Shown: piece after piece, positions 1,112-60,347 of the stretch | Layout of the letters: each line of letters starts with the position of its first letter | Numbering within the stretch: position 1 is the first letter of the stretch | From: a virus | Length of the DNA: 64,000 bases | IMG/VR virus record: IMGVR_UViG_3300025728_000001 | Span: 1 to 64,000 of that record | Direction: 5' to 3' (one strand) | Made by a program: the position numbers and the translations under genes | Notes under the pieces: model-generated | The model's input: only the letters and a program-made list of their open reading frames with translations | Told to the model about the DNA's origin: nothing | Database searches by the model: none

Positions 1112-1137
1112 CGCCTAATCAGAAAGGAACCCCTGTC

Positions 1138-1404
1138 ATGCTGACTGAGAAAACCATCGAGCCCAAGGAAAAAGCACTGCGTAAAGGTTCATTCATGCGC
1201 TGGCTGTCAACGTTTGAGCTGGGCGAGATTCGCATTAAAGAGTACGACTCCCGAGAGGGGGCAGTCCGTGATCATCGCTCGCTCTTTAACCACTCCAGAT
1301 TCAAAGGTGCGATGAAGGACATGCGGTTTTCTGGCTCGCAGGGGCTTGCGGTCTATTCCGACTTAAACGGCGTCCATATTCTGCGCGTCGAACGCACAAG
1401 CTAA
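1138..1404 (+). CDS. hypothetical phage protein, 88 aa
   Basis: Strong ribosome site (AGAAAGGAACCCC) before ATG. The product is an alternating polar/hydrophobic mix that ends in a probable beta strand (GVHILRVERTS). No motif recognised. It is separated by 33 bases from the next gene, whose leader carries the CGCCAGAGATAA element. Confidence 0.65.
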   Translation: MLTEKTIEPKEKALRKGSFMRWLSTFELGEIRIKEYDSREGAVRDHRSLFNHSRFKGAMKDMRFSGSQGLAVYSDLNGVHILRVERTS

Positions 1405-1420
1405 ACAAACCAAACCTAAC

Positions 1421-1432
1421 CGCCAGAGATAA
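1421..1432 (+). promoter_or_regulatory. CGCCAGAGATAA leader element, copy 1
   Basis: Twelve-base element that ends 5 bases before the ATG at 1438. Two further exact copies and one near copy stand directly upstream of starts at 23960, 25142 and 29947/29990. No better ribosome site lies between it and this ATG, so it may act as the ribosome site or a leader control element. Confidence 0.45.
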
Positions 1433-1437
1433 ACGAT

Positions 1438-1923
1438 ATGACAAAGAGACTCATGGAAGCCCCCCGGCTTGAATCCACGCCTTGCGCGCACTGCACCGCC
1501 ACTGGGTTGCGCGCTGGCGTTGATTGCCCCCGTTGCCACGGCCTGGGATCGTTCCTGACCAAACGCGGCCGAGCTGCTCGCGCCTACATGCGTACCCTGC
1601 TGGAAAAGCCGGGTGTGTCGGTAGTTGTGGGCGATGTAGTGTGGTTCCCGGTCGGGAGCTTGAAGGTCGCCACCGCTGTGCTGCGCGTGGAACTGGACGT
1701 AGGCCCAACCCGTCGCATTCGACTGCATGGCAAGCGCCGCAAGACTGACGAAGACATTGCCTTTACCGTCGCCACCGGCGGCCTGGTGGATCTGGCGTAT
1801 ACCCCGCAAGAGCTGGAAGAGGTCCGGGCCAAGGTCGAGGCGTACCAAGCGACCCTGGCCAAAACCGGCGAGGTATCAAAGCGCCCACGCTCCCTTAGTC
1901 GAGTCCTCAAGCGCGCCGCGTAA
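1438..1923 (+). CDS. small protein with DnaJ-type zinc finger, 161 aa
   Basis: The N-terminus has CAHC (residues 16-19) and CPRCHG (30-35), a CxxC-x10-CxxCxG arrangement like half of the cysteine-rich domain of DnaJ. The rest is beta-rich up to about residue 115, then a helical, basic C-terminal tail. Phage proteins of this type are often annotated as DnaJ-like zinc finger proteins with unknown role; a part in gene regulation or assembly is possible. The gene ends before a long inverted repeat at 1932-1965. Confidence 0.6.
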   Translation: MTKRLMEAPRLESTPCAHCTATGLRAGVDCPRCHGLGSFLTKRGRAARAYMRTLLEKPGVSVVVGDVVWFPVGSLKVATAVLRVELDVGPTRRIRLHGKRRKTDEDIAFTVATGGLVDLAYTPQELEEVRAKVEAYQATLAKTGEVSKRPRSLSRVLKRAA

Positions 1924-1931
1924 ATGACGCA

Positions 1932-1965
1932 AAGGCACCAAAGCGGTAAAGCGTTTTGGTGCCTT
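1932..1965 (+). terminator. 11-bp inverted repeat, possible terminator or operator
   Basis: AAGGCACCAAA (1932-1942) pairs perfectly with TTTGGTGCCTT (1955-1965) across a 12-base loop. It lies just after the stop at 1923. No U-run follows beyond the stem's own TT, so this is either a weak terminator or a binding site. Confidence 0.45.
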
Positions 1966-2014
1966 AAAGTTAGCCCCGCGGCCATCGGGGCCGACCGAAC
2001 ATAAGGCGTAGGGC

Positions 2015-2770
2015 ATGAGCGAAGTATTAGCGGTGCGTGAGAGTGATCAAGTAATGCGCGAGCTGGCGCAGACGAAAGCATCCGTTATCGAAGCTCAACG
2101 GGTGCTTATTGTTGGCGCTGGCGCTCTCCCCAAGCTGCTGGGGGAGTTGAACGACAGCCTGGCCGAGTTGGGCTATGTGTGCGTGCCGATTGAGCCCGCG
2201 CAAGGCCTGTACAAGACGTTTGCGGATCTGCTGGCGTGTCCGTCGCTGGCGCCGCTGCTGGAAACCACTGAGTTGGTGCAGGTGGTAGCTGATGATCGGC
2301 CCCATACGCACGGTGTCGCCATTGAGCCCGATCCGCAGCAATCAGCCTATGCGCCGTATGTTCCCGAAGGCGCCAGGCAGGCCGACGCGGCGCTTGATGA
2401 ATCGAGTATTGTCGAGCGCCAGATTCTCGCCCTGGAGCAATCACTTGCCCTTTCGGGCGCTGCACCTGAGCCCGTTGCCGACGATCCGTTGCCCGTTGTG
2501 GCTGACGTGTCGAAGCTCGACATGGGCAAGCCAATCAACTGGAAGTTGGGCGATGTCTTTATCTCCAACCCCCGCGTCACTCTCCCGCACAAGGTCCGTA
2601 AGTGGATTCTCGACTCGCTGGACGTTACCAATCTGGAAAATCTGCGTGGGGTGGACGTTCAACTCAGAAGTCCGAACACGACCACCACTGAACTGATGAC
2701 GCTCAAGCAATTTATGGCTGAGTATTTGTTCCTGAGACGCCCGGTAGCAGAGCAAAGCGCCGCCGAGTAA
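2015..2770 (+). CDS. hypothetical phage protein, 251 aa
   Basis: The first 90 residues are helical with a hydrophobic core (VLIVGAGALPKLLGELNDSL). A low-complexity Ala/Pro/Glu linker spans about 95-165, and a compact C-terminal domain starts near residue 170 (MGKPINWKLGDVFISNP). No family recognised. It sits immediately before the giant polyvalent gene and could be co-packaged or a head-associated protein; that is inference from position. Confidence 0.55.
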   Translation: MSEVLAVRESDQVMRELAQTKASVIEAQRVLIVGAGALPKLLGELNDSLAELGYVCVPIEPAQGLYKTFADLLACPSLAPLLETTELVQVVADDRPHTHGVAIEPDPQQSAYAPYVPEGARQADAALDESSIVERQILALEQSLALSGAAPEPVADDPLPVVADVSKLDMGKPINWKLGDVFISNPRVTLPHKVRKWILDSLDVTNLENLRGVDVQLRSPNTTTTELMTLKQFMAEYLFLRRPVAEQSAAE

Positions 2771-2826
2771 CCCCGTTTCGACGCCTCAAAATATGGGCTT
2801 GCATACCACTATGTAGGCCCTTATCC

Positions 2827-5800
2827 ATGCCCCCCAATGCCATAGAGCAAGCCCGGAGCGCCGCAAAGCTGTTACAGCTACGCGCGCCGCTACTGTCGGG
2901 CAGTCTTACCCCCATCGAACAAATGCGCGCCACGGCCGAATCTATCGAGCTGCATGCCGCTCTGTTGGACGCCCTCCCGGAATCAGCGCCAAACCCCCTT
3001 AACGCCTTGGAGTTAATGCGCTTTAGCGCTGAGCTTCTGACGGTGCGCGCCAACCTGGAAGCCGGCAAGCTCAGCCCGATTGAACAGGTTCGCGCCAGTG
3101 CCCGAGGTTTGGAGCTGCGCGGGCTGCTGGGCTCCGCTCGACGCCCGCAACGGCGCCGGCAAACTGAGCCCGCCAATACCGTGCGGCTTCTGGTTACGGA
3201 CACCATCGCGCAGAAAAACGGCGGTCTGCTCGTTACCGGCAACTCGCTGGCGCTGTCGGCCTATGCCACGGCCTACATGGATCAGGCCAGGTTCACCATG
3301 ACGGCGGCCGGCCTGCTCTTCACCAAGGCTCAGGCCCGAGCAGCCAAGGCGCTACCGACCACGCAAGAAATCTTGCCGTCTGGCGCTGTGCTCTACACCT
3401 ACGCCGATCCCGAAGGCGTGGCGGTGGCGTACAAGGGTGATATCTCCGGGATTGCCCGCGACCTGGCCGACCTGAAAAGCCTGATGGCGCAGGAATGGGG
3501 ACCGGTGAAATTCCGCACCGTGTTTGGTGAGGATGCAGCGCCGGCGGACGTTGAGGCGTACCAGGAAGAACAGGCCGCCATTGCCCAACGCAAACAGGGC
3601 TCGCTCGATGAGGCGGCGCAGGCTATTGCTGATCAGCAGCTGGCGCAGGAACAGGAACAGCTCCGGATCCAAGCAGAAGCCGACGAAACCGCGCGCATCG
3701 TGGCGCAGAACCAAGCGGACGCCCAGGCTGAATTTGAGCGCACCATCGGCGCCGGCACCTCTGAAAACCCACTCTACCAGGCCTATCTCGACACCCTGGA
3801 AGAGCTGCCTACCAAGATCAGCAACGCCGAATTCATCGGGTGGGCGGGTATTCGTGCCGGCGAATTTGAACGACTGAGCAAAGGCCGCGTATCGAACGAC
3901 AGGGCTGGGCACCTGGCCTATGTGCGCCAGTGGGCGGATGAGCACCTTTCGGCGCGAGTGAAGACTGCAAAGGCGCTGGCTGACAACCCGGAATCTCTCC
4001 CTGATCCAGCCGCGCAAGGCCCGCTGGTCATCACCGCCGAGACACCTGACGCCACCATTGAAGGCGCCAGCGACGAGCAGCTACAGGCGAAGCTGTTGGC
4101 CGTGGCCAAGGACTTCTATCGCGGCCTGAGTCATGCCACCAAGGACATCGCGCGGCGCCTGGAGAAAGGCACCTACGACCGCGCCGACGCCATCAAGGCC
4201 CTCAAGCAGAACCGTGACTACCTGATTGAGCGGGTGCGAGCGAGCGCCGAGTGGGACACCGACATGATGGCGCGCATGGGCCGTCAGTACGGTGAGAAGT
4301 CCGTGGCCGAGCTGGAATCGATCCATGAGGCCATGGGTGGCGAGATTCGCAGCACGCAAAGCGACCGGGAAATGAATGGCAACGGTGGGCGCCGCACTGG
4401 CGCGGCTGTGGCCAACGAAGCCGCGCGCGGAATGGGCCAGCACCGTCTGGAACTGGGGATCTACATCAAGGCCCGCAAAGCCGCCGAGCCGGTACCGGCG
4501 CCAGTGGTCGACGAACCCGTAATAGACCAGCCCGCGGCAACGCCTGCGCAGGCTGTGCAGCACGAAATCATTGAGTACACCACCAAGAAGGACAAGGTTC
4601 TGCGCGGGATCATCCGCACGGACCTGAGCCTGGCCGAAGCCAAGGCCATCGACCCGTACACCTGGCGCATGAACGGCGGTTACTTCATTCGCGAGAAGCA
4701 CCTGGAAGGCGAAACCGCACATATCCAGGCTGCGCCGGCGCCGGTGGTGCTGTCGCCTGAGCAGCAAGTGGAGAAAGCCGCCACTGACGAACGCCTGGCC
4801 GAAGAGCGCCGCCAGAAAGCACTGGGTAGCCAAGTCGAGAAACTGCGCAGCGTGGCGAACAAGGCCATTGAGGGCGGTGAGGCTGGCATGGGCCAGGATC
4901 GCAACACCAACACCGCCAGGCGCGCCGGTATGGCCGCCAGCGCCATCGCCAAAGCATCCGCCAACAAGGCCGACGGCCAGACGCTCAACAACATCGCAGA
5001 CGCTATCGAAGTCGGCGCCGGTGGCCTGCTGACCAAACTCAGCAGCCGCGCCCAACTGGAAGAGCTGCAAAGAGCCTTGCGCATGGCGCAGTACGAGACG
5101 GATCGGCGCCTGAGCTATAGCGAGCAGTTGAAGCGCAAAGGCCGGCCATTCGATGACGAAGACTTGAAAAACGTCGTCATGCCGAGCCAGGTAACGTGGG
5201 CGAGCCGCTTCAATGACGCCGCCAAGATCATTGCCAAGAAAAGCCCAACCGGCAATGCCCGCCTGATTGCCGCCCTGTACAAGATGGGCGCCCGCTCCGA
5301 ACGCTTCACCATGAACCCCGAGGACGCGGCGATTACCCGCAAGGCCTACGACGTGCTCAAGGGTTTGAAAGAGGGGTACACGCTGCAAGACCCGATGGAA
5401 AGCCTCGCCCGCCAGGAGCGTTTGGCCCGGATGGGGATCACCGACGCCTCAACCTTGCGCGAAGCCACGCGCGAGCTGTTGCCGATGATGGTTGCAAAGA
5501 CCGAAGAGAGCGCCGTCAAAAAAGCTGAGCGGGCCATTATTGGCCAGAAGGTCGGTATCGACTTTTTCCCAACGCCTGCAAACGTGGCGCAGCGCATGGC
5601 CCGGCTGGCGGGTATCAGCAAGGGTATGCGGGTATTGGAGCCAAGCGCCGGCAACGGCAACCTGGCGGACGCTGCCAAGGCGGACGGCGGGGAGGTGGAC
5701 GTGATCGAGATATCCAGCCAGCTGCGCGACATCCTCACGGCCAAGGGCTACAACGTCGTTGATCACAACTTTGACGGCTTCACGCCCGAGCAGCCGTATC

Positions 5801-6069
5801 AGGCGATCCTGATGAACCCACCGTTTAGCCAGCGCCAGGACGCGGCACACATCATGCGCGCCTTTGGAATGCTCGCCAGTGGTGGCCGCCTGGTAGCGAT
5901 TGCTGGGGAGGGTGTGTTCTTCGGCCAGGATCAGAAGGCTGTCGCTTTCCGCACTTGGTTGGACACTCACAACGCCACGGTTGAAAAGCTGGACGGCGGC
6001 ACGTTCAAGGACAAAGAGCTGTTGGCGCAAACCGGCGCAAATGCCCGTCTGATCGTCCTCAAAAAGTAG
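2827..6069 (+). CDS. polyvalent protein with C-terminal adenine-type DNA methyltransferase (DarB-like)
   Basis: 1080 residues. About the first 112 hold four imperfect repeats built around PIEQMRA/LELRA. A long Gln/Glu/Ala coiled coil follows near 245-310. Near 570-640 lies a domain beginning EIIEYTTKKDKVLRGI, of a kind found in large phage and plasmid polyvalent proteins. The last 175 residues are a class I methyltransferase: motif I VLEPSAGNGN (about 936-945) and motif IV NPPF (997-1000), the catalytic signature of N6-adenine enzymes. Head-carried proteins of this build (P1 DarB is the model) protect incoming DNA from restriction. The gene ends at a strong terminator just before the major capsid gene, which supports a virion role. 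Specificity cannot be read from sequence. Confidence 0.75.
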   Translation: MPPNAIEQARSAAKLLQLRAPLLSGSLTPIEQMRATAESIELHAALLDALPESAPNPLNALELMRFSAELLTVRANLEAGKLSPIEQVRASARGLELRGLLGSARRPQRRRQTEPANTVRLLVTDTIAQKNGGLLVTGNSLALSAYATAYMDQARFTMTAAGLLFTKAQARAAKALPTTQEILPSGAVLYTYADPEGVAVAYKGDISGIARDLADLKSLMAQEWGPVKFRTVFGEDAAPADVEAYQEEQAAIAQRKQGSLDEAAQAIADQQLAQEQEQLRIQAEADETARIVAQNQADAQAEFERTIGAGTSENPLYQAYLDTLEELPTKISNAEFIGWAGIRAGEFERLSKGRVSNDRAGHLAYVRQWADEHLSARVKTAKALADNPESLPDPAAQGPLVITAETPDATIEGASDEQLQAKLLAVAKDFYRGLSHATKDIARRLEKGTYDRADAIKALKQNRDYLIERVRASAEWDTDMMARMGRQYGEKSVAELESIHEAMGGEIRSTQSDREMNGNGGRRTGAAVANEAARGMGQHRLELGIYIKARKAAEPVPAPVVDEPVIDQPAATPAQAVQHEIIEYTTKKDKVLRGIIRTDLSLAEAKAIDPYTWRMNGGYFIREKHLEGETAHIQAAPAPVVLSPEQQVEKAATDERLAEERRQKALGSQVEKLRSVANKAIEGGEAGMGQDRNTNTARRAGMAASAIAKASANKADGQTLNNIADAIEVGAGGLLTKLSSRAQLEELQRALRMAQYETDRRLSYSEQLKRKGRPFDDEDLKNVVMPSQVTWASRFNDAAKIIAKKSPTGNARLIAALYKMGARSERFTMNPEDAAITRKAYDVLKGLKEGYTLQDPMESLARQERLARMGITDASTLREATRELLPMMVAKTEESAVKKAERAIIGQKVGIDFFPTPANVAQRMARLAGISKGMRVLEPSAGNGNLADAAKADGGEVDVIEISSQLRDILTAKGYNVVDHNFDGFTPEQPYQAILMNPPFSQRQDAAHIMRAFGMLASGGRLVAIAGEGVFFGQDQKAVAFRTWLDTHNATVEKLDGGTFKDKELLAQTGANARLIVLKK

Positions 6070-6093
6070 GCCCGCGCAACGCGAAAACCATGC

Positions 6094-6121
6094 AAACCCC
6101 CGCCAAAAACGGGGGTTTTTC
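6094..6121 (+). terminator. intrinsic terminator after the methyltransferase gene
   Basis: AAACCCCCG (6094-6102) pairs with CGGGGGTTT (6110-6118) across a 7-base loop, and the stem's 3' T's run on to a five-T tract. It isolates the capsid gene as the start of a new transcription unit. Confidence 0.9.
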
Positions 6122-6185
6122 GCACTTAACATCATTTCTGAAACGAATCGGGCGCAGCCCACCATTATCAGAAATGAGGTTACAC

Positions 6186-7871
6186 ATGCCTACGAATACT
6201 TACGCGCCCGACTCCGGTTTGGGTGAGGTTGCCGCCAAGGTTGGTACGCTGGTCGGTGCTGCGCGCGGCAACGGCAACATGCTCGACAGCATGAGCGCTT
6301 CGGCTCAGGACGTTGTGAAATTGGCCGTCGCCGATGCCAAAAACCTGCTGCCGGCCCGTATGGCTCGCCTGCTGGACAAGATCGACGGTGAAGGCAACCA
6401 GGCGTTGGCCGTTACCTCCATGCTGGACGGTATCGCCAGCTTCCAGCGCAAGCACGGCTTTACCCCGTCCGCCGACATGATCGATGCGGTACTGTCCCAG
6501 GCGGAAAACCTGGCAGACGGCAAGGCCACCAACGTGCTGCCGAACGGCACCACCTTGGACAGCATCAGCACCAACAACCAATCGGCCACCCTGTCGCACC
6601 AGCCAAACCGCATTGCGGTAGCCATCACCGGTGGTTTGAGCGAGGCGATTCCGTTCGGCGCCTACCTGCCGTCCGACCTCAGCTCTAACGAGTCGAAGCT
6701 GGCCATCATCACCAGCGTCGCCGGTTCGACCTTTGGCGGGTACACCGAGGGTGACATCCTTGACGGCACCAATGGTGGCCGCGAATACACCCGCTCCGAG
6801 CGTATCGTGACCGTTACCCTCGACGCCGAGCGTGATGCCGGTACCTTTGCCTTCAAAACCGGTTCTGCTGGCGGCGGCGCAACGGTGCCCCTGATCCGCA
6901 ATCGCACCGCTATCGTGGTGAACGGCTTCCCGGTGGCTTTCGAGCAGCCAAACAACTCCGGTACCGCCAACTCGCTGATTTCCGGCCAGGTCAAGATCGG
7001 CTCCACCAACCACGTCGTGACCGGTAGCGTCAATGTCACCACCGGCGCCGGTACCCTGGTGTTCGCTCCGGCACTGCCGGTCGCTACCGAAGTTGAAGCG
7101 CAAGGCTTCATTGACTTCGAAAAAAGCCCTGAGCTGGCCCCGTACATCGGCACCGTGGCTCAGAGCTTCTCGCTGTTCTGCGCCCCGACTCGCCTGATCA
7201 TGCAGGCCACCCCGGATTCCCGTAGCTCGACGCAATCGGAATTGGGCGCTGACCGTCTGACCATCGCTGTACAGGCTGCACGTACCCAGCTGGCGAACGA
7301 GCGTTACATCGCCGCCCTGAACAAGGTCCGCAAGCTGGCGAAGAACACCGCTCGCGAATACGACTTCAACGCGGCCGAGCAGCTGTTGCAGAAAACCCGT
7401 GCCCAAGGCTGGCGCGACTTCGGTTCCTTCGTGGCCGCGGTTGACCAGGACGTGGCCAACCAAACCATGGAATTCGGCCTGTCGTTCATGTACGTCGGCG
7501 CCAAGGGCATGTCGCAGTTCCTGTCGATGGGTACGGATGACTTCGTGCCGTCCGGTGTCGACGCCAAGGCCGGTATCTGGCGTGTCGGTCGCTACAAGAA
7601 CAAGTACGACGTCATTTACACCCCGTATGTCGTTCAGGAAACCGATTTCGATATCGAAATCCTCTGCATCGGTCGCTCCCCGCAAGTGGCGCGTAACCCG
7701 ATTGTGTTCTCGGATGCGGTGTCGCCAACCCTGATCCCGCTGGCAGTGAATGCGGACCTCAAAACCGGCGCGGCGCTGTTCTCCCGCCAGTTGACCGAGG
7801 TCAACCCGCACCAGCAATCGGCACTGGGCTGCGCGCTGATCACCATCAAGAACGTGTTTGCACTGAGCTAA
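6186..7871 (+). CDS. major capsid protein
   Basis: 561 residues from the ATG at 6186, which has the ribosome site TGAGGT; in-frame codons further upstream lie in the terminator and are not used. The product has the size and composition of a large myovirus capsid protein: helical N-terminal section (about 1-115), beta-rich middle with many Gly/Thr (140-350), helical spine region (365-430) and a beta C-terminus. An MLDS motif at 32-35 and TLDS at 123-126 match motifs repeated in the prohead protease/scaffold product (59442), suggesting a processing or scaffold contact site. Its place before the sheath and tube genes fits. A shell protein other than the main one is the alternative. Confidence 0.75.
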   Translation: MPTNTYAPDSGLGEVAAKVGTLVGAARGNGNMLDSMSASAQDVVKLAVADAKNLLPARMARLLDKIDGEGNQALAVTSMLDGIASFQRKHGFTPSADMIDAVLSQAENLADGKATNVLPNGTTLDSISTNNQSATLSHQPNRIAVAITGGLSEAIPFGAYLPSDLSSNESKLAIITSVAGSTFGGYTEGDILDGTNGGREYTRSERIVTVTLDAERDAGTFAFKTGSAGGGATVPLIRNRTAIVVNGFPVAFEQPNNSGTANSLISGQVKIGSTNHVVTGSVNVTTGAGTLVFAPALPVATEVEAQGFIDFEKSPELAPYIGTVAQSFSLFCAPTRLIMQATPDSRSSTQSELGADRLTIAVQAARTQLANERYIAALNKVRKLAKNTAREYDFNAAEQLLQKTRAQGWRDFGSFVAAVDQDVANQTMEFGLSFMYVGAKGMSQFLSMGTDDFVPSGVDAKAGIWRVGRYKNKYDVIYTPYVVQETDFDIEILCIGRSPQVARNPIVFSDAVSPTLIPLAVNADLKTGAALFSRQLTEVNPHQQSALGCALITIKNVFALS

Positions 7872-8858: not shown

Positions 8859-10490
8859 ATGAGCATTCCTTTTTCTCGCTCCATTGATAAGCGTTCGGGC
8901 GTCCAGCTCAACCACATCAATGACATGTCGGAAATGCCGAGCGTCAGCACCGTAGCGCACAACATGGCCATTGCTGGCCGGTTCGCGCGTGGTCGCACCG
9001 ACAAGGTGTTTGCCGTCTCGCGCGGCAAGCTCAAGCGCACTTTGGGCGCCGCTCAGTCGCTGTCGGTTAGCGCCTTGGGTGAGCCGTATGTGCATATCTC
9101 CGAAGCTCTGAAAGGCGGCACGGTGCAGGCCATCGTTTCCCGCCTGGTGAGTGCGGACGCCACCAACAAGCTGATGGTTGCCACGGCCTCGGTATTGCCA
9201 GAAACGGCGGTATGGACCCTGGTGGACGAAGCCACGGGCGCCACCGGCAATTATCTGATCGCCATCAAACACTTGGAATGCTTCTCGGAAGGCGTCAAGG
9301 CTGAGATTCATGCCGACGCCGCCACCGACGCCGAGGGTGATCCGGCCGCGTCCAAAATCATCGTGCTGCAACTGCGCGACGTGAACACCAACGCAATCGT
9401 CCTTGGTCCCTACAAGGGCTCGCTGGATCCGGCGGCGCTCGATGAGTTCGGCAAAAGCTATTTCATTGGCGATATCGTGGCGCAGTACACCGACCTGCTG
9501 GAAGTGGTCGACGTGCATGCCGCCGCCGAGGTTCCGCTCACTTGCGTGTTCTACGGCAAGAAGGACAACAAGGACGCTTTTGCATCGGCGGCCCTGACCC
9601 CCTTCACCGAAGGTTCGACGCTGTACACCACCGCTGACCTGGACGCGGCGGTTGATCGCATTCGACGCTCGAAACCGACCTTTACCTACATCGGTTTGGG
9701 CGGCACTGAAAGCGTGGCGTTGATTTCTCGCCTGCTGGAACTGGGCAAGGAAATCAACAAGCAGGCGCCGTGGGACATTCCTGGTCGTTTCACCCCGGAA
9801 GCTGCCAAGACCTTCTATGACTCCGTTGGTGGCGCTACCGACAGCCTGTACAGCCAGTGCTATTGGGCGCCGATCATGGCTACCAACCCGGAAGTGGGCG
9901 GCAAGGCCTTTATGGGCACATCGGGCCTGAACATCGGCCTGCGCTGCGCTCGCAACGCTCAGACCAACGCCAAGGGCATCGCCCCGCGTAACGTCGTGAT
10001 TGCCGGCAGTGACTTCGCGGTCAACCGTACCAACATGGTGCAGACCTACGAGCCGTCGGACGACGAGCTTGAGTTGTTGGCGGCCAGCCGGATCAACCCG
10101 GTGTTGTTCAAGGATTACGCCAGCGGCGGCAAATACGCCTGGCTCGATTCCTTGACCGGTGCGCAGACCGAAGGCGCCAGCAAGTTGATCGCCGTAGTGG
10201 AAATGGCCACCTACGTCGACGACACCATCGCCTCGGCCGCTCAGGAAGCGTTGCAGAAGCCAATGGCCAAGGCCATCAAGCAAACCACGAAGTTCATTTC
10301 GACCTTCCTGGAGTCGCTGCAATCGGCGGAATGGCTGCAACCGAGTGCAGAACTCGACGGCGCCTGCTACTCGGCGGAAATCCAGGCGAATGCCAATCAG
10401 CCATTCGAGAAAATGAACATCGACACGTCCATCTGCTACGACGGTACGGCTCGGATCATCGTCCAGCAGCAATCGATCGTCCGCACTTAA
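8859..10490 (+). CDS. contractile tail sheath protein
   Basis: 543 residues, the usual size for a sheath subunit. The N-terminus (SIPFSRSIDKRSGVQ) and the pattern of a variable outer domain (about 60-270) followed by a conserved C-terminal half that ends in a beta strand (GTARIIVQQQSIVRT) match myovirus sheath proteins. In the family the C-terminal strands weave neighbouring subunits together and contract to drive the tube through the envelope. The tube gene follows 2 kb later, as expected. The intact reading frame and good ribosome site (CCAGGAGG inside the preceding gene) support expression. Confidence 0.8.
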   Translation: MSIPFSRSIDKRSGVQLNHINDMSEMPSVSTVAHNMAIAGRFARGRTDKVFAVSRGKLKRTLGAAQSLSVSALGEPYVHISEALKGGTVQAIVSRLVSADATNKLMVATASVLPETAVWTLVDEATGATGNYLIAIKHLECFSEGVKAEIHADAATDAEGDPAASKIIVLQLRDVNTNAIVLGPYKGSLDPAALDEFGKSYFIGDIVAQYTDLLEVVDVHAAAEVPLTCVFYGKKDNKDAFASAALTPFTEGSTLYTTADLDAAVDRIRRSKPTFTYIGLGGTESVALISRLLELGKEINKQAPWDIPGRFTPEAAKTFYDSVGGATDSLYSQCYWAPIMATNPEVGGKAFMGTSGLNIGLRCARNAQTNAKGIAPRNVVIAGSDFAVNRTNMVQTYEPSDDELELLAASRINPVLFKDYASGGKYAWLDSLTGAQTEGASKLIAVVEMATYVDDTIASAAQEALQKPMAKAIKQTTKFISTFLESLQSAEWLQPSAELDGACYSAEIQANANQPFEKMNIDTSICYDGTARIIVQQQSIVRT

Positions 10491-10500
10491 GGGGAATTAC

Positions 10501-11238
10501 ATGGATAAGCTACTGCAACGCGTTCTCACGTCCAGCGAGGCGATCACCAAGGCCTACGCGGCACCGGTGATTGTTCCCGAGGTGGCGCAAGTACCAAACC
10601 TGCCACTGTCGAACCTGTCTCAGGCCATGCTCGACGCCATCGATCCAGCCAACGCGCCGGCGGCTCTGTTCACCGACGAAATGCGCCAGGAGGCGGTGGC
10701 CATCGTCCAGGAATGGGCTGAGTCGGAACTGGAAACCGGCGAAGGCTTTGGCGACCGTCTGTATGCGCTGGTTGTGGGCAGTGCCACCGACAGCGACGAC
10801 GAAATCAGCGACGACGAAGCCGAATATGCCGCTGGCCTGGCTGAACTGGTGGGCGACTACCTGGAAGGCAAGGGCATCGACGGCGCCGACGTGGATTCGC
10901 TGCTCAGTGACGATCCGTCGTTTGATAACGACGTGGCCGCCCGCATTCACGACGCGCTGCTGGATAAGCTGCCGCAGGGTGAAGATGCCATGCTCGATGA
11001 CGCTGACAAGTTCGTCAGTGGCGAAGACGATGAAATGCTCGACGCGGTTTACAAAAAGGTCGTGGCGATCCGTGGTGGTAAGAAGGTCCGCATCAAGAAG
11101 CGCGTTAGCGGGCACGTTCGCCTGACCGCCGCGCAGAAAGGTGCTGTGCGTAAGATGCAGCGCAAAGCCTTCTCGGGTGGCGCAAAGATGAAGCGCGCCA
11201 AGTCCATGCGCTTGCGCCAACGTCTGCTCGGTAAGTAA
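10501..11238 (+). CDS. hypothetical virion protein, acidic middle and basic tail, 245 aa
   Basis: Ribosome site AAGGGG before ATG. Residues 75-180 are strongly acidic (DSDDEISDDEAEY, EDAMLDDADKF), while the last 50 are strongly basic (KKVRIKKRVSG, KMKRAKSMRLRQRL). The split charge suggests a nucleic-acid or protein-binding tail in a structural or assembly protein. It sits between sheath and tube in the structural operon. No family recognised. Confidence 0.5.
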   Translation: MDKLLQRVLTSSEAITKAYAAPVIVPEVAQVPNLPLSNLSQAMLDAIDPANAPAALFTDEMRQEAVAIVQEWAESELETGEGFGDRLYALVVGSATDSDDEISDDEAEYAAGLAELVGDYLEGKGIDGADVDSLLSDDPSFDNDVAARIHDALLDKLPQGEDAMLDDADKFVSGEDDEMLDAVYKKVVAIRGGKKVRIKKRVSGHVRLTAAQKGAVRKMQRKAFSGGAKMKRAKSMRLRQRLLGK

Positions 11239-11241
11239 AAC

Positions 11242-12426
11242 ATGGCTGACTTTGGCTTTGATAGCCTGGGCAAAACCGTCTCCGCCAGCATCAAGGGCGT
11301 TACCGGGACGGTGGCCGGGAGTACTTCCAACTCACTGCTAGGGTCAGCCACCAAATTCTTAGGGGACGGCGCCGCTGGCGCCGGCTCTGGCATTCTCAAG
11401 GCCGGCGTGTTGCAGATTGACGGCCTGGTGGGCGGTACCGCCAACCGCAAGGCCATTGAGGGCGCCGTCAGCACCGTGACGGGCACGGTGGCCGATCTGT
11501 GGAGCGGTAAAACCTCCATCGGCGCGGTATACGACAAGGCCTCTGAAAAAGTGATGGGGCTGGTGGGCGGCGGCGGGACTGATGCCGGGCCGGGCGCGCT
11601 GGTCGGCAACGTCCTGGGCAGCGTGGGCGAGTACCTGCCAGGGCTCAAGACGCTCAGTTCTGACCTGGGTGGCGACTGGGGCCGGCTTTCGCCGTTGTTG
11701 CTGGCGCGGATTTTCGTCTGCAATGCCAAGGGCGTGGCCGATATCCTGGAGTTCGCCGGCGTGTTTGGGGCGCTCAAAGAGGGCTCGCTGGAGATTCAGC
11801 AAAACTGGCAATCGCCGTTTGAGAACACTGGCCCGGAAACCAAGGCGCCCGCGTTGGCCGGTATGCTGCAATCGGGTTCGCTGGTGCCGGTTCTAAACGC
11901 GCTCCAGGCGATATCCCCATTCAAGGATGGCGCGATATCGGACAGCCTCAACGGTGGCTCTGACAAGCTCAAGAGCGTCATGCGCGACCTTGAGGGGCGC
12001 ACAGGCATCACCAAGCTGAATTCGCGCCAAGTGTTTTCCGGTATGCCGCCGGTAAAGGTGAATTTCACCCTGCATTTCCGGGCGTTGAGCGATCCGCTCA
12101 CCGAGGTTGAGGCGCCGCTGACGCGTTTGCTTGAGTGGGTGTTCCCACAAGAGCTGGCCGAAGACGGGATTCTGTCGGAAGTGCTGAAAACCACGAACAG
12201 CGTCGAGTCGTTTATTCAGGCGTTGTTTCCGTCTACAGCGCCCAAGCTGCTGGGCCTCACCTACGCCGGCCGTACCTGGTCGCCCATGGTGATCGAAAAC
12301 GTCAGTTTCCCGCTCGACTCCCCGAAGAACTCGCAGGGCTATTTCATCGACCTCCCGGTGCAGGTGTCCATGTCGACCCTCACGGCGCTCGACCGCCCGG
12401 ACATCAAGCGTTTCTTTGGTCGCTAA
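11242..12426 (+). CDS. putative tail/baseplate protein, 394 aa
   Basis: Begins 3 bases after the previous stop. The first 170 residues are Gly/Ala/Ser-rich and partly hydrophobic (GAGSGILKAGVLQIDG), typical of a flexible or membrane-active N-terminus. The second half is a compact domain with beta strands (PVKVNFTLHFRALSDPLTEV, GYFIDLPVQVSMSTLTAL). Its place between sheath and tube and the beta domain suggest a tail-tube initiator or baseplate hub protein. The unit ends at the terminator at 12452. Confidence 0.45.
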   Translation: MADFGFDSLGKTVSASIKGVTGTVAGSTSNSLLGSATKFLGDGAAGAGSGILKAGVLQIDGLVGGTANRKAIEGAVSTVTGTVADLWSGKTSIGAVYDKASEKVMGLVGGGGTDAGPGALVGNVLGSVGEYLPGLKTLSSDLGGDWGRLSPLLLARIFVCNAKGVADILEFAGVFGALKEGSLEIQQNWQSPFENTGPETKAPALAGMLQSGSLVPVLNALQAISPFKDGAISDSLNGGSDKLKSVMRDLEGRTGITKLNSRQVFSGMPPVKVNFTLHFRALSDPLTEVEAPLTRLLEWVFPQELAEDGILSEVLKTTNSVESFIQALFPSTAPKLLGLTYAGRTWSPMVIENVSFPLDSPKNSQGYFIDLPVQVSMSTLTALDRPDIKRFFGR

Positions 12427-47992: not shown

Positions 47993-48576
47993 TTTTTCTG
48001 AATCGCGCTGATTTTGAGTATGCCGCCAAGGAAGCCGGGATAACCGACCTTGAGCACGCCGGGGAGCATTACGCCAACCCCCACACGCAAGCGGCCTTCT
48101 TGGTCTGGATGAGCGTGGCATTCCCGCGCACCAGCACCGGGGTCAGTCCGCTGGCGTGGGTGAATCGTCGTAACGGCAAGGCGGTGGGGCTGAGCATGAC
48201 GCGCCCGAGCGGGCCAGAGTCGGCCGGCTGGGCCAAGCGCCGCGCCCAAGGCTGGGAGCCGTCTATGCCGATGTTCGCCAACGTGCCAGGGGTGAGCCCC
48301 GAGGTGATGGCGGTCGTGCTTGAGCACCAGCGCCAGCGCCAGGAAGAGGGCTATTCGATACAGAGCGACCTGGCGCAATACCGCGGTGGCGAGCTGGCGC
48401 GGTCGGCGGCGTGCTACGCGATGCAGGCCGGTGGCATGTATCCCCTACGGTGGGCCAACTTCTGGCCGTTTAACTCGAAAATGAAGTCGTGCCCGCCCAC
48501 TGAATCGCTGATCAAGGCGGGCGCACTGATCTTTTCCGAACTGGAGCGCATCAAGGCACAAGAGGCGGCCCGATGA
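47989..48576 (+). CDS. conserved phage protein with GGELARSAACYA motif, 195 aa
   Basis: The C-terminal third contains QYRGGELARSAACYAMQAGG, YPLRWANFWPFN and LIKAGALIFSELERIK, a pattern seen in many phage proteins of unknown function. The N-terminal part is probably a small alpha/beta domain. No enzymatic site recognised. Confidence 0.55.
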   Translation: MIFLNRADFEYAAKEAGITDLEHAGEHYANPHTQAAFLVWMSVAFPRTSTGVSPLAWVNRRNGKAVGLSMTRPSGPESAGWAKRRAQGWEPSMPMFANVPGVSPEVMAVVLEHQRQRQEEGYSIQSDLAQYRGGELARSAACYAMQAGGMYPLRWANFWPFNSKMKSCPPTESLIKAGALIFSELERIKAQEAAR

Positions 48577-49262
48577 GTTTGCCACCGCTCTACGAGGATG
48601 CCCGGTGGCCCGCGTTCATCGCTCGTTACGCCAACGACCTCTGCGCGTTTGCCGCTGATGTCCTCGGCATGGAGGTAACGCCAGCGCTCGCCCACGCCTA
48701 CTGCCTCGCCTCGCTCCCTGGCTGTCGTGTGTCCATCGCTACCGACATCGATTTGAATGGTGTCGACGCCATTAGCCCGATGGCGCCTATCGCGATCTGG
48801 CGCCTGCTGTGTCGCCCTGAGTCCAGAACCTTAGTGACCATTCCTTTTGGTGGTGGGCGTGCCCGCAAACAGCAATACGTGCGGTTGCTGACGTGGATGG
48901 TCGAGGGCGCCCATAGCTGGTTGCGCGCCTATATCAGTGTTGACGCTACTCAAATCTATCTGCGGCGCGGGTATACGGGCTCGAAAATCCTGTTCCTCTG
49001 TGCCGACCAGAGAAGCCCCGAGAGTCTGGCCGGGTTCTACGGGGGTCACATTTGCTGGCTGATGGAGGCCGCCGAGGACATTCCTGATGCGTGTTTCAGC
49101 GTGGCGCTCGCGGCGATGACCGATCCGGGCGCCTGCATGCTGCTCACCAACAAACCTTGGCGGGAATCGGGGTTTGCCGCCGACACACGCGGAAAGCTGA
49201 GCAAGGACCAGGGCGGACAGTGGGACGTCTGCGCCTTGGCTGGCGCGCAAACCACGCAATAA
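48573..49262 (+). CDS. degenerate terminase large-subunit ATPase paralogue, 229 aa
   Basis: Aligns along its whole length with the ATPase domain of the following terminase: RWPAFIARYA/RWPAFVARYA, GCRVSIA/GCRVSVA, IWRLLC/LWHLLC, RSPESLAG/GSPENLAG, IPDACFSVALAAMTDP/IPDENFGVIGGALTDP and RESGF/RSSGF. Where the true enzyme has Walker A (SGHG-TGKT) this one has ATDIDLNGVDAI, and the Walker B Asp-Glu is Glu-Ala (WLMEAAEDIP). It has no intein and no nuclease domain. The frame is intact and ATGA-coupled, so it is kept. A pseudo-ATPase partner of the motor is the likely role. Confidence 0.7.
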   Translation: MSLPPLYEDARWPAFIARYANDLCAFAADVLGMEVTPALAHAYCLASLPGCRVSIATDIDLNGVDAISPMAPIAIWRLLCRPESRTLVTIPFGGGRARKQQYVRLLTWMVEGAHSWLRAYISVDATQIYLRRGYTGSKILFLCADQRSPESLAGFYGGHICWLMEAAEDIPDACFSVALAAMTDPGACMLLTNKPWRESGFAADTRGKLSKDQGGQWDVCALAGAQTTQ

Positions 49263-57855: not shown

Positions 57856-59445
57856 ATGGCCGACGAAAAGAAACCGAAAAAGAGCTGGCTGGGGTCGCTT
57901 AGCGACACCACCAAGCTTTTGCTGGGCGAGGTGAGCACGGCGCCCGAAAACCGAATGGAAGGCATCAGCACCTTCGACGCTGATTACGTCGGCATTGAAA
58001 TGCTGTTGGGGTCGAGTGATCGCCCCGCCCGGTCCCGTTCTGCGATCTATCAGAAGTGGCATTACATGATTCAGGACGGGCTGATCAGCACCATCCTGCG
58101 CTTACACGTCCAGATGGCGCTGGGCGGCCACGAGACGACCGGGGAAACGATCTTTATCGAACCCAAGCCCGGTATCTCGGCGGCGGACAAGAAGGCCGTC
58201 GACGAACTGCAATTTATCGCCAAGATCCTCAACAAGCACGCGCACGGCATGTGCTTCACCGCCTGTGCCTTCGGGGATGCCTACGCCCGGCTCTACACCC
58301 AAAAGGGCGAGGGGATGTTTGCCTTCGACAGCGAGCAGCCGTTTGCGCCCCTGGTGCAGGCCTATGAAGAGATTGGCCAGACCGTGGGCTACATCGTCAG
58401 TCTCGGGTCGAAGCTGCAAAGCCGCTTCAATCACCTGGACATGGTGCGTATGCGCATGCCGCGCATGGTGTACCTGCCACAGATGCGCGCCATCGAGAAC
58501 GCCCAAAAGATCAACCTGGAAGCCACTCAGCCGCGCGATATGCGGCCATTGCCGGCGCTGGTGGGCGGTTCGTTCCTGGAAGCGGCCGAGGTGGACTACG
58601 ACAACCTTATGTCCGCCCTGCGCGGGATGATCGGCCAGCGTATCGCCGGATCGATTGACGAAACCATGATCGGCGCCAACCTCTCCGACATGACGGCGGC
58701 GCAACAAAAGCTGTTCATGGACTCGCTGGAAAAGATGCTTATCAGCATGAAAACCCGCGCAGAGGATGCCGTGCGCACGGGCCAATACGCCACCTCGCGC
58801 AACTTCCACGTCATGCCGACCTTCAATGAAAAGCAGCTGACGCAAATCAGCTCGTTTCAGGGCGGCTCCAACTCCGGCGCCGGCGCCAACATCGAAGACG
58901 TGATGTTCTGCGCCCGCAAGCTGGCGGGCACGCTGGGCATTGACCTGTCGATGGTGGGCTTCGCTGACCAAATGACCGGGGGCCTGGGTGAGGGTGGCTT
59001 TAACCGCACCAGCAGCCAGGCCGCTGAGCGCTCCCGAATCATCCGCACCGCCTTTATGCAGACGGTGAACGACACCATCGACCGCCACATGCTGGCCAAG
59101 ACCGGCAAGTGTTGGGCGGACGATGAACGCCCCTATGACGTGAATTTCTTCGGCTCCATTGCGGCGCTTGAGGCTGAGAAACAGGCCAGCCGAGAACGAT
59201 CGATCAATGCCGGCGCCATGCTGCTCCAGGCTATGGATGGCATGCGAACCATGGGCCTGCCGCAAGACGTTTGCGAGCAGTTCCTGGCCTCAATGATGGA
59301 AATCGACGCCGACAAGGCCAAGGTGTTCGCCAAAGGGATCAAGGATGCAAAACCGCCAGCGCCTGATATGGGCGGTGGCTTCGGCGGTGGTGATGACAAC
59401 CCGCAACCGCTACTGCCGAACGGCACTACAGAGAGAGAGGAATGA
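57856..59445 (+). CDS. portal protein
   Basis: 529 residues, typical for T4-type portals. ARSRSAIYQKWHYMIQDGLI, then ILRLHVQMALGGHETTG mark the N-terminal wing; the helical stem lies near 260-330 (LSDMTAAQQKLFMDSLEKM). The late DLSMVGFADQMTGGLGEGGF region is the crown-side loop, and the tail is Gly/Pro/Asp-rich. The dodecamer is the gate for DNA and joins head to tail. Overlaps the protease gene by ATGA. Confidence 0.85.
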   Translation: MADEKKPKKSWLGSLSDTTKLLLGEVSTAPENRMEGISTFDADYVGIEMLLGSSDRPARSRSAIYQKWHYMIQDGLISTILRLHVQMALGGHETTGETIFIEPKPGISAADKKAVDELQFIAKILNKHAHGMCFTACAFGDAYARLYTQKGEGMFAFDSEQPFAPLVQAYEEIGQTVGYIVSLGSKLQSRFNHLDMVRMRMPRMVYLPQMRAIENAQKINLEATQPRDMRPLPALVGGSFLEAAEVDYDNLMSALRGMIGQRIAGSIDETMIGANLSDMTAAQQKLFMDSLEKMLISMKTRAEDAVRTGQYATSRNFHVMPTFNEKQLTQISSFQGGSNSGAGANIEDVMFCARKLAGTLGIDLSMVGFADQMTGGLGEGGFNRTSSQAAERSRIIRTAFMQTVNDTIDRHMLAKTGKCWADDERPYDVNFFGSIAALEAEKQASRERSINAGAMLLQAMDGMRTMGLPQDVCEQFLASMMEIDADKAKVFAKGIKDAKPPAPDMGGGFGGGDDNPQPLLPNGTTEREE

Positions 59446-60347
59446 TCATGCGTAAGCGCACAGGGGTTATCAGCTACAACTTGAACGACCGTGGCCGAGA
59501 CTTTAACGGCCAGGATCGTGACGTCGACATTGCCGCGGCCATGCGCTTGATCAATGGCCCGGCGGTACAGGAGCTGGTGCGCCAGGGTGATGTGTACGGT
59601 TACTTCGGGCACACGTTCCGCGAGAAATACGGCCTGAATGTGCCTGAAACGGTGATCGAGGGCGGCAAAGTGGTGGTGCTTGAGCCCAGCGTGCGCACGG
59701 TGTTTATCAAGTGCCTGCCTGACGGCACCGTAGAGCACGAACAGGAGTTTTTGAACAATGCGCCCGGCCGTATTGCTGGCCGCCTGTACGACAGCAAGGC
59801 CTACGGTTTCAGTTCGGTGTTCCATGCGCCCGAAGAGAACGGCAAGCGCACGCCCAAGACCTATCACGGCATGGATTTCGTCAGGACACCGAACTACAAC
59901 ACCAACAAGGGCTATACCGCGATGCTGGATAGCGTCGAGCCGGGCGCCATCGAGTCGCTGGGCTTTGCGGGCGAGTGCGCCGCCATGATGGACAGCGTAG
60001 ACGCGATCATGGCTGAGAACGACGCTACCGCGGCCGGGATCAGCGAGGCCTACCTGCACCAGTGCAAGGTTAACGATGACCTGGTAGACCTCAATGCACG
60101 CCTGATGCTGCGCCTACAGAAGGCCGGTACCGGCGCCATGCTCGACAGTCTCGATCCGACCACACTGCAACGCGGTTCGGAGTTCCTGCCCAGTCGTGCG
60201 GCGGCCATGCTCGACAGCGCGGATCGTTTCATGTCCGCTGTTCTGCCAGAACTGGAGCCTGCGCCCGAACAAGTGGAAGCCGACAAGAAATCCGGCGTCC
60301 TGGCCAAGAGCATCGACATGGTGCGCAAAGTGATTGGGGGGGTGTAA
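59442..60347 (+). CDS. prohead protease/scaffold protein
   Basis: 301 residues. The first 150 fit a T4 gp21-type protease (YFGHTFREKYG with a candidate His57; GRIAGRLYDSKAYGFSSVFHA with Ser124/125). The C-terminal half is scaffold-like (helical, acidic). It has MLDS at 161-164, 233-236 and 256-259 and MMDS at 182-185, motifs also near the start of the major capsid protein. They may be cut sites or scaffold contacts. Placement directly after the portal is usual. Assignment by order and motifs. Confidence 0.65.
   Translation: MIMRKRTGVISYNLNDRGRDFNGQDRDVDIAAAMRLINGPAVQELVRQGDVYGYFGHTFREKYGLNVPETVIEGGKVVVLEPSVRTVFIKCLPDGTVEHEQEFLNNAPGRIAGRLYDSKAYGFSSVFHAPEENGKRTPKTYHGMDFVRTPNYNTNKGYTAMLDSVEPGAIESLGFAGECAAMMDSVDAIMAENDATAAGISEAYLHQCKVNDDLVDLNARLMLRLQKAGTGAMLDSLDPTTLQRGSEFLPSRAAAMLDSADRFMSAVLPELEPAPEQVEADKKSGVLAKSIDMVRKVIGGV

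What the first reader, a model, noticed from the sequence alone, without database searches (positions are those of the whole stretch)
2827..6069. Polyvalent protein with four N-terminal repeats and a DNA methyltransferase
1080 residues: four PIEQ-x-RA/LELRA repeats, coiled coil, unknown domain and an NPPF methyltransferase, encoded just before the major capsid gene. This build is like P1 DarB: methylate incoming DNA before restriction. The repeats may anchor the protein in the capsid.
Basis: partly seen in the sequence, partly recalled or inferred. Interest (0 to 1): 0.55.

Follow-up and report, generated by a model that had tools for sequence, protein, structure and literature searches.

The report
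Doubled address tag on phage methyltransferase
A Pseudomonas phage gene thought to carry one block of four repeats actually carries two copies of a short start-of-protein tag, joined when a neighbouring gene was deleted; sister phages put that tag on two or three different proteins, probably to load them into the virus head for injection.

Summary
In detail: 2827-6069 encodes 1080 residues with four ~24-residue N-terminal repeats and a C-terminal NPPF methyltransferase, 20 bases before a P1-gp23-type major capsid gene. Relatives change its meaning. In 21 related records (Pseudomonas phage-plasmids and IMG/VR contigs) two separate genes lie before the capsid gene, an LPD1/HExxH protein and this methyltransferase, and each starts with a two-repeat tag (predicted helical hairpin). 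In the window and two sisters the LPD1 body is gone and both tags sit on one methyltransferase: repeats 1-2 nest among LPD1 tags, repeats 3-4 among methyltransferase tags, and the leader DNA is that of the LPD1 gene. So the four repeats are two fused tags; both are under purifying selection. Two more distant relatives put the tag also on a zincin-like protein. The record encodes DarA_N/Hdf-like and InPase-DarA_N-DdrB proteins outside the window, and P1 DarB enters the head by an N-terminal signal. Best reading: a portable capsid-targeting tag, shared by several Dar-type cargoes, delivers a TaqI-like adenine methyltransferase with the DNA. The fusion is well supported; capsid entry, injection and methylation are inferred. 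It is not a DarB orthologue: no helicase, only distant methyltransferase similarity.

The parts
2827..6069 (+). tagged methyltransferase gene, 1080 aa
2833..2973 (+). tag A (residues 3-49): two repeats, predicted helices 3-24 and 29-48; descended from the N-terminal tag of the lost LPD1 gene
   Evidence: tree; LLR +19.2; leader DNA; helices
2974..2997 (+). linker between the fused tags (residues 50-57); deletion junction lies here or close by
2998..3138 (+). tag B (residues 58-104): two repeats, predicted helices 60-79 and 84-104; the methyltransferase's own tag
   Evidence: tree; LLR -59.1; helices
3139..4536 (+). middle region (residues 105-570): beta-rich part ~120-202, long helix 239-305, helices; region of uneven length and content in relatives (LPD3 in some)
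4537..5436 (+). conserved region before the methyltransferase (residues 571-870)
5437..6066 (+). class I methyltransferase domain (residues 871-1080): FPTP 914-917, LEPSAGNGN 937-945, NPPF 997-1000
2782..2826 (+). leader shared with the LPD1 genes of sister phages (approximate limits)
   Evidence: alignment
2015..2770 (+). upstream ORF (251 aa), also present upstream of the third fused gene
6090..7871 (+). major capsid protein, P1 gp23 homologue
8859..10490 (+). tail sheath, P1 gp22-like
10501..11238 (+). P1 gp21-like protein
11242..12426 (+). PmgG-like head morphogenesis protein
57856..59445 (+). portal protein, P1 Prt-like (E 2.6e-40)
59442..60347 (+). prohead protease, P1 Pro-like (E 4e-22)

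Best explanation
This P1-like Pseudomonas phage family uses a ~46-residue N-terminal helical hairpin (two repeats) as an address tag on separate proteins that are loaded into the head and injected with the DNA. In the window phage an in-frame deletion removed the body of the tagged LPD1 gene and joined its tag to the tagged methyltransferase, giving four repeats. The tag would dock the protein to a Dar-type platform or to the inner face of the procapsid; after ejection the TaqI-like adenine methyltransferase would modify the incoming genome before restriction. Shown: tag homology, its place at the N-terminus of two or three cargo types, the fusion and its direction, purifying selection on both tags, DarA_N/Hdf/DdrB-like genes in the same record. 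Inferred: capsid entry, injection, adenine methylation, protection.
For: Fusion: the leader DNA before the start is nearly the same as at the LPD1 starts of two sisters; LPD1-versus-MT score +19.2 for tag A and -59.1 for tag B, against leave-one-out ranges of +39.5 to +62.2 (20 LPD1 tags) and -10.9 to -75.2 (20 MT tags); in the tree the three A tags form one group (99/99) inside the LPD1 tags next to those of the nearest relatives, and B tags lie among the MT tags; no LPD1 body in G000, G009 or G415. Portable tag: 21 records have LPD1 and MT genes, each with its own N-terminal tag; of 20 whole records searched, 19 have exactly two tagged places and one has three, with no extra place at E<=0.1; u13102, outside the model, has the tag on a zincin-like gene and on an MT gene, E 4e-10 and 6e-11. 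Constraint: dN/dS 0.117 tag A, 0.165 tag B, 0.084 methyltransferase. Setting: capsid gene next door; P1-like portal, protease, sheath, gp21, PmgG, DdrB, DarA, Hdf. P1 precedent: 30 N-terminal residues of DarB send a reporter into the head (PMC9024508, section 3.3). Methyltransferase: M.TaqI best structural match.
Against: No virion proteome or methylome was available. The tag does not match P1 DarB, DarA, Hdf, DdrB or Ulx (best P1 protein DdrA, E 0.05 among 12 proteins, hhalign probability 5%). Tag A's class score (+19 to +26) lies between the LPD1 and MT ranges. The tag was not found in P1 or in the 29.5-kb Rb1 stretch, so it is not general. No target-recognition domain was recognised after the methyltransferase. 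MT and LPD1 models have pTM 0.35 and 0.38.
Confidence: 0.6

Rival explanations
1. The hairpin is a docking domain: LPD1 protein and methyltransferase pair through their tags into one complex, and the fusion replaced that pair by one chain. Head targeting is not its job.
For: The two tagged genes are always neighbours; the four helices could pack as a bundle (helices; packing not examined); LPD1 tags and MT tags are separate in the tree.
Against: Three tagged proteins in pPRS08-11306, and a zincin-MT pair without LPD1 in u13102, need a tag that works with changing partners; the fused lineage keeps both tags after losing the partner, dN/dS 0.117 and 0.165.
Confidence: 0.25
2. The methyltransferase acts in the producing cell: it modifies phage DNA during lytic growth, and the tag only places it at assembling procapsids. 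It is not injected.
For: Location next to the capsid gene; catalytic motifs intact; M.TaqI-like fold.
Against: The same tag on LPD1 and zincin-like proteins, and the DarA/Hdf/DdrB-like genes, fit packaged cargo better; a cytoplasmic methylase needs no N-terminal tag shared with them.
Confidence: 0.2
3. Tag A is only a leftover of the deletion; one tag is enough and the four-repeat state means nothing.
For: A deletion explains its origin fully, and relatives manage with two repeats.
Against: It has stayed intact in three records of one lineage, with dN 0.085 against dS 0.73 between window and u16672; constraint on translation alone is not excluded.
Confidence: 0.25

Closest known systems
Phage P1 DarB and its N-terminal capsid-targeting sequence (Gonzales et al. 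2022, PMC9024508)
   Same: Large protein with an N6-adenine-type methyltransferase; P1-like virion; signal at the extreme N-terminus by analogy
   Different: No helicase here; tag unlike DarB's first 30 residues; shared by several cargoes, whereas in P1 BLAST showed no consensus among Dar N-termini (section 3.3); NPPF here, NVPF aligned in DarB
Polyvalent proteins with LPD domains (Iyer et al. 2017, PMC5512222)
   Same: Methyltransferase, LPD1, LPD3, InPase, DarA_N, DdrB-ParB and HExxH-bearing modules
   Different: MTase and LPD1 parts, both matched by one PHROG profile (phrog_18947), are separate chains here, each with its own tag
Phage T4 internal-protein capsid targeting sequence
   Same: Works like: N-terminal address for head cargo (described in PMC9024508, section 3.3)
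   Different: T4 details recalled, not tested; no sequence relation sought

Membership tests
DarB (methylase-helicase) family | EcoKI/TaqI-like methyltransferase domain | tested here: met
   Foldseek M.TaqI E 7.8e-6; hhalign to P1 DarB 87%, E 4e-6
DarB (methylase-helicase) family | C-terminal SF2 helicase | tested here: not met
   Protein ends with the methyltransferase domain; no helicase hit
DarB (methylase-helicase) family | LPD36 domain before the methyltransferase | tested here: inconclusive
   Helical region 644-890 present in the model; no LPD36 hit in the Pfam scan
Capsid-targeting sequence (DarB or T4 type) | Extreme N-terminal position, shared by different cargoes | tested here: met
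Capsid-targeting sequence (DarB or T4 type) | Necessary and sufficient for entry into heads | not testable with these tools
   Needs virion proteomics and reporter fusions
Capsid-targeting sequence (DarB or T4 type) | Sequence relation to the P1 DarB signal | tested here: not met
   Tag profiles gave no significant hit in P1 Dar proteins
P1-like phage | Homologues of gp23, gp22, gp21, PmgG, portal, Pro, PacB | tested here: met
P1 Dar system | DarA, Hdf and DdrB homologues in the genome | tested here: met
   G000:73409-74989 (Hdf E 4e-11, DarA_N 48 bits), G000:77138-81172 (DdrB E 5e-98; InPase, DarA_N, ddrB-ParB)
N6-adenine DNA methyltransferase | Methylation activity and target site | not testable with these tools
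   Motifs only; no recognised target-recognition domain

The most novel reading that the evidence does not exclude
A phage family has a portable, sequence-defined N-terminal hairpin that addresses several unrelated enzymes (LPD1/HExxH protein, zincin-like protein, adenine methyltransferase) to the head interior, so that cargo can be swapped or doubled by moving the tag; the window phage doubled it by a natural deletion-fusion. It would be the kind of common signal that was looked for and not found by BLAST among P1 Dar proteins.
Probability: 0.55. Interest if true: 0.75.

Novelty: new variant of a known kind. Interest (0 to 1): 0.6.

Why it matters
How phages choose which large proteins go into the head is known for few cases. 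For P1 the authors thought a common signal among Dar proteins reasonable, but BLAST found none (PMC9024508, section 3.3). Here a clear tag is shared by different cargoes in one phage family, with a third cargo and a natural doubling, so the question can be tested by tag transfer and proteomics in laboratory Pseudomonas phage-plasmids. A working tag of about 46 residues would also be a simple handle for studying phage protein delivery.

Tried and rejected
Kinship of the tag with the N-terminus of P1 DdrA (similar by eye): profile E 0.05 among 12 proteins, hhalign probability 5%; left as a lead only. Tag in P1 and in the Rb1 stretch by six-frame scan: lowest E 0.35 with the pair profile and 0.92 with the single-repeat profile. 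Tag region in sequenced phages by tblastn: no match. Origin of tag A as a copy of tag B: rejected by tree and leader DNA; plain pairwise scores alone had been ambiguous. Tag in 398 Pseudomonas genomes: the full tag only in the one already known (two places), plus one partial weak hit in G373 not followed up; in the listed genomes only 17 candidates each were scored, so this is a weak negative. LPD1 fold: no Foldseek match at E 0.001. LPD1 and MT in one chain in Acinetobacter pGFJ2: only LPD1 was clear (MT profile 2.0 bits). Acinetobacter phage ABMM1 was fetched but not scanned for tags. Genome scan with the capsid alignment gave 1 locus. Literature searches for precedents; I saw no listed paper that describes this tag, but only three papers were opened (passages of PMC12810830 and PMC5512222; abstract, passages and section 3.3 of PMC9024508) and the library is open-access only.

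Full report
OBSERVATION. The gene at 2827-6069 encodes 1080 residues. Its first ~105 residues hold four ~24-residue repeats. Residues 3-50 against 57-105 score 101 (best of 5000 shuffles 52), and four of six single-repeat pairs were reached by none of 3000 shuffles, the others by 3 and 19. The AF2 model (17 sequences, mean pLDDT 77, pTM 0.35) makes each repeat one helix: 3-24, 29-48, 60-79, 84-104. So two repeats make one hairpin. The C-terminal ~210 residues are a class I methyltransferase. Pfam hits are weak (Methyltransf_23 22.3 bits, cut-off 27) but PHROG hits are strong, and Foldseek's best match in the PDB is M.TaqI. FPTP, LEPSAGNGN and NPPF are conserved.

SETTING. The next gene, 6090-7871, is a homologue of P1 major capsid protein gp23 and of the capsid protein of Xanthomonas phage Rb1. 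Further P1-like genes: sheath, gp21-like, PmgG-like, portal, protease, PacB-like terminase. The record (G000, 85,816 bases) also holds, outside the window, a 527-residue frame with a DarA_N domain and similarity to P1 Hdf (73409-74989), and a 1345-residue frame with InPase, DarA_N and ddrB-ParB domains and strong similarity to P1 DdrB (77138-81172, E 5e-98). Homologues of the P1 Dar platform are therefore present.

RELATIVES. The nearest annotated relatives are plasmids of Pseudomonas: pKF715C, the SM1 and DR133 plasmids and, further away, pPRS08-11306. In the first three the methyltransferase gene is preceded, with a short overlap, by a ~774-residue gene; Pfam finds LPD1 (PF18796) in the pKF715C protein and in the u46542 one, and all three show an HExxH motif (read). 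Both proteins begin with a two-repeat tag. Scans anchored on the capsid protein, the methyltransferase and the LPD1 protein gave more loci. In the 86 loci and window pieces scanned (24,241 stop-to-stop frames) every frame with the tag at E<=0.01 was an LPD1 or MT gene, one of them a truncated MT start. After removal of duplicate contigs 21 records have both genes, each with its own tag at the extreme N-terminus (in one of them, u23082, only the first MT repeat passed the threshold; some records are near-copies, leaving 20 distinct tags of each kind). LPD1 proteins are 771-777 residues and complete MT proteins 803-1406, the difference lying in the middle region, which in some holds LPD3. Records whose gene starts were cut by contig ends were not counted (for example u46512 and u48913).

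EXCEPTIONS. In three records there is no LPD1 body and a single MT gene has four repeats: the window (G000), u16672 (G009) and u46615 (G415; gene cut by the contig end, found later). The sister LPD1 protein finds in them only the tags.

THE FOUR REPEATS ARE TWO TAGS. (1) The leader DNA before the window gene's start is nearly that of the LPD1 gene starts of u46542 and u34523. (2) A leave-one-out score built on 20 LPD1 and 20 MT tags separates the classes fully (LPD1 +39.5 to +62.2, MT -10.9 to -75.2); window tag A scores +19.2 and tag B -59.1, u16672 +26.4 and -50.9, u46615 +23.4 and -59.1. Tag A is on the LPD1 side but between the ranges. (3) In a tree of 46 tags the three A tags form one group (99/99), inside the LPD1 tags and beside those of the nearest relatives (95/84), while B tags fall among MT tags of the same relatives (99/99). 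The tree rests on 46 columns, and many forks are unresolved. The simplest history is one in-frame deletion in this lineage. After it, dN/dS between window and u16672 is 0.117 in tag A, 0.165 in tag B, 0.084 in the methyltransferase and 2.4 in the eight-codon linker, so both tags are kept.

THE TAG IS PORTABLE. A profile of 29 tags found exactly two places in 19 of 20 whole records and three in pPRS08-11306 (most of these tags are in the model, so the informative part is the lack of others). The third tagged protein there has HELAHHLE, an HExxH motif as in zincins (motif read by eye, no Pfam peptidase hit). In u13102, a distant record not in the model, the tag stands on a similar HExxH protein and on an MT gene, E 4e-10 and 6e-11, with no LPD1. 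So at least three cargo types carry it. It was not detected in P1, in the Rb1 stretch or in the 30-kb record u26278.

MECHANISM. In P1 the six Dar proteins are packaged, DarA and Hdf are needed for the others (PMC12810830, passages), and the first 30 residues of DarB suffice to send a reporter into heads; the authors thought a common signal reasonable but BLAST showed none (PMC9024508, abstract, passages and section 3.3). The Pseudomonas tag has the right place and the right distribution for such a common signal. I therefore read it as a capsid-targeting hairpin (about 0.6), with a docking function between the tagged proteins as the main rival. The methyltransferase resembles the EcoKI/TaqI-like type that PMC5512222 (passages) describes for polyvalent proteins and predicts to be adenine N6-specific. 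Its alignment to DarB shows NPPF here against NVPF in DarB. Without a recognised target-recognition domain or helicase its site and its need of partners are unknown.

MEMBERSHIP. It may work like DarB but is not filed as DarB: the helicase is missing and the N-terminus differs. It belongs to the polyvalent proteins in a broad sense.

LIMITS. No experiment touches head entry, injection or methylation. The LPD1 model is poor (pTM 0.38) and its fold search found nothing at E 0.001.

Noticed in passing
window 49329-51623 and 48573-49262: The large terminase (PacB-like) has a Hint/intein-type insert splitting its Walker A stretch (GHG...TGKT); directly upstream a 229-aa ORF also matches PacB residues 7-210 but lacks that motif, like a dead paralogue.
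   Followed up: partly
G000:77138-81172 (L008:2138-6172), outside the window: InPase, DarA_N and ddrB-ParB domains in one 1345-residue frame: DarA-like and DdrB-like parts, separate in P1, in one chain.
   Followed up: partly
L103:633-4885 (G419, u13102): The tagged methyltransferase gene of this distant relative is split by an inserted opposite-strand 626-residue ORF (1127-3007).
   Followed up: no
L005:17151-19013 (pPRS08-11306): A third tagged protein with an HExxH motif between the LPD1 and methyltransferase genes.
   Followed up: partly
L087:27542-27907 (P1 DdrA): P1 DdrA's first 45 residues look like a two-repeat hairpin by eye; statistics do not support kinship with the tag.
   Followed up: yes
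window 1438-1923: 161-aa ORF with weak similarity to Anti-TRAP and DnaJ zinc-finger families.
   Followed up: no
window 60348-62888: 846-aa protein with a GH19 chitinase-type domain and DUF6861 similarity, next to portal and protease genes.
   Followed up: no
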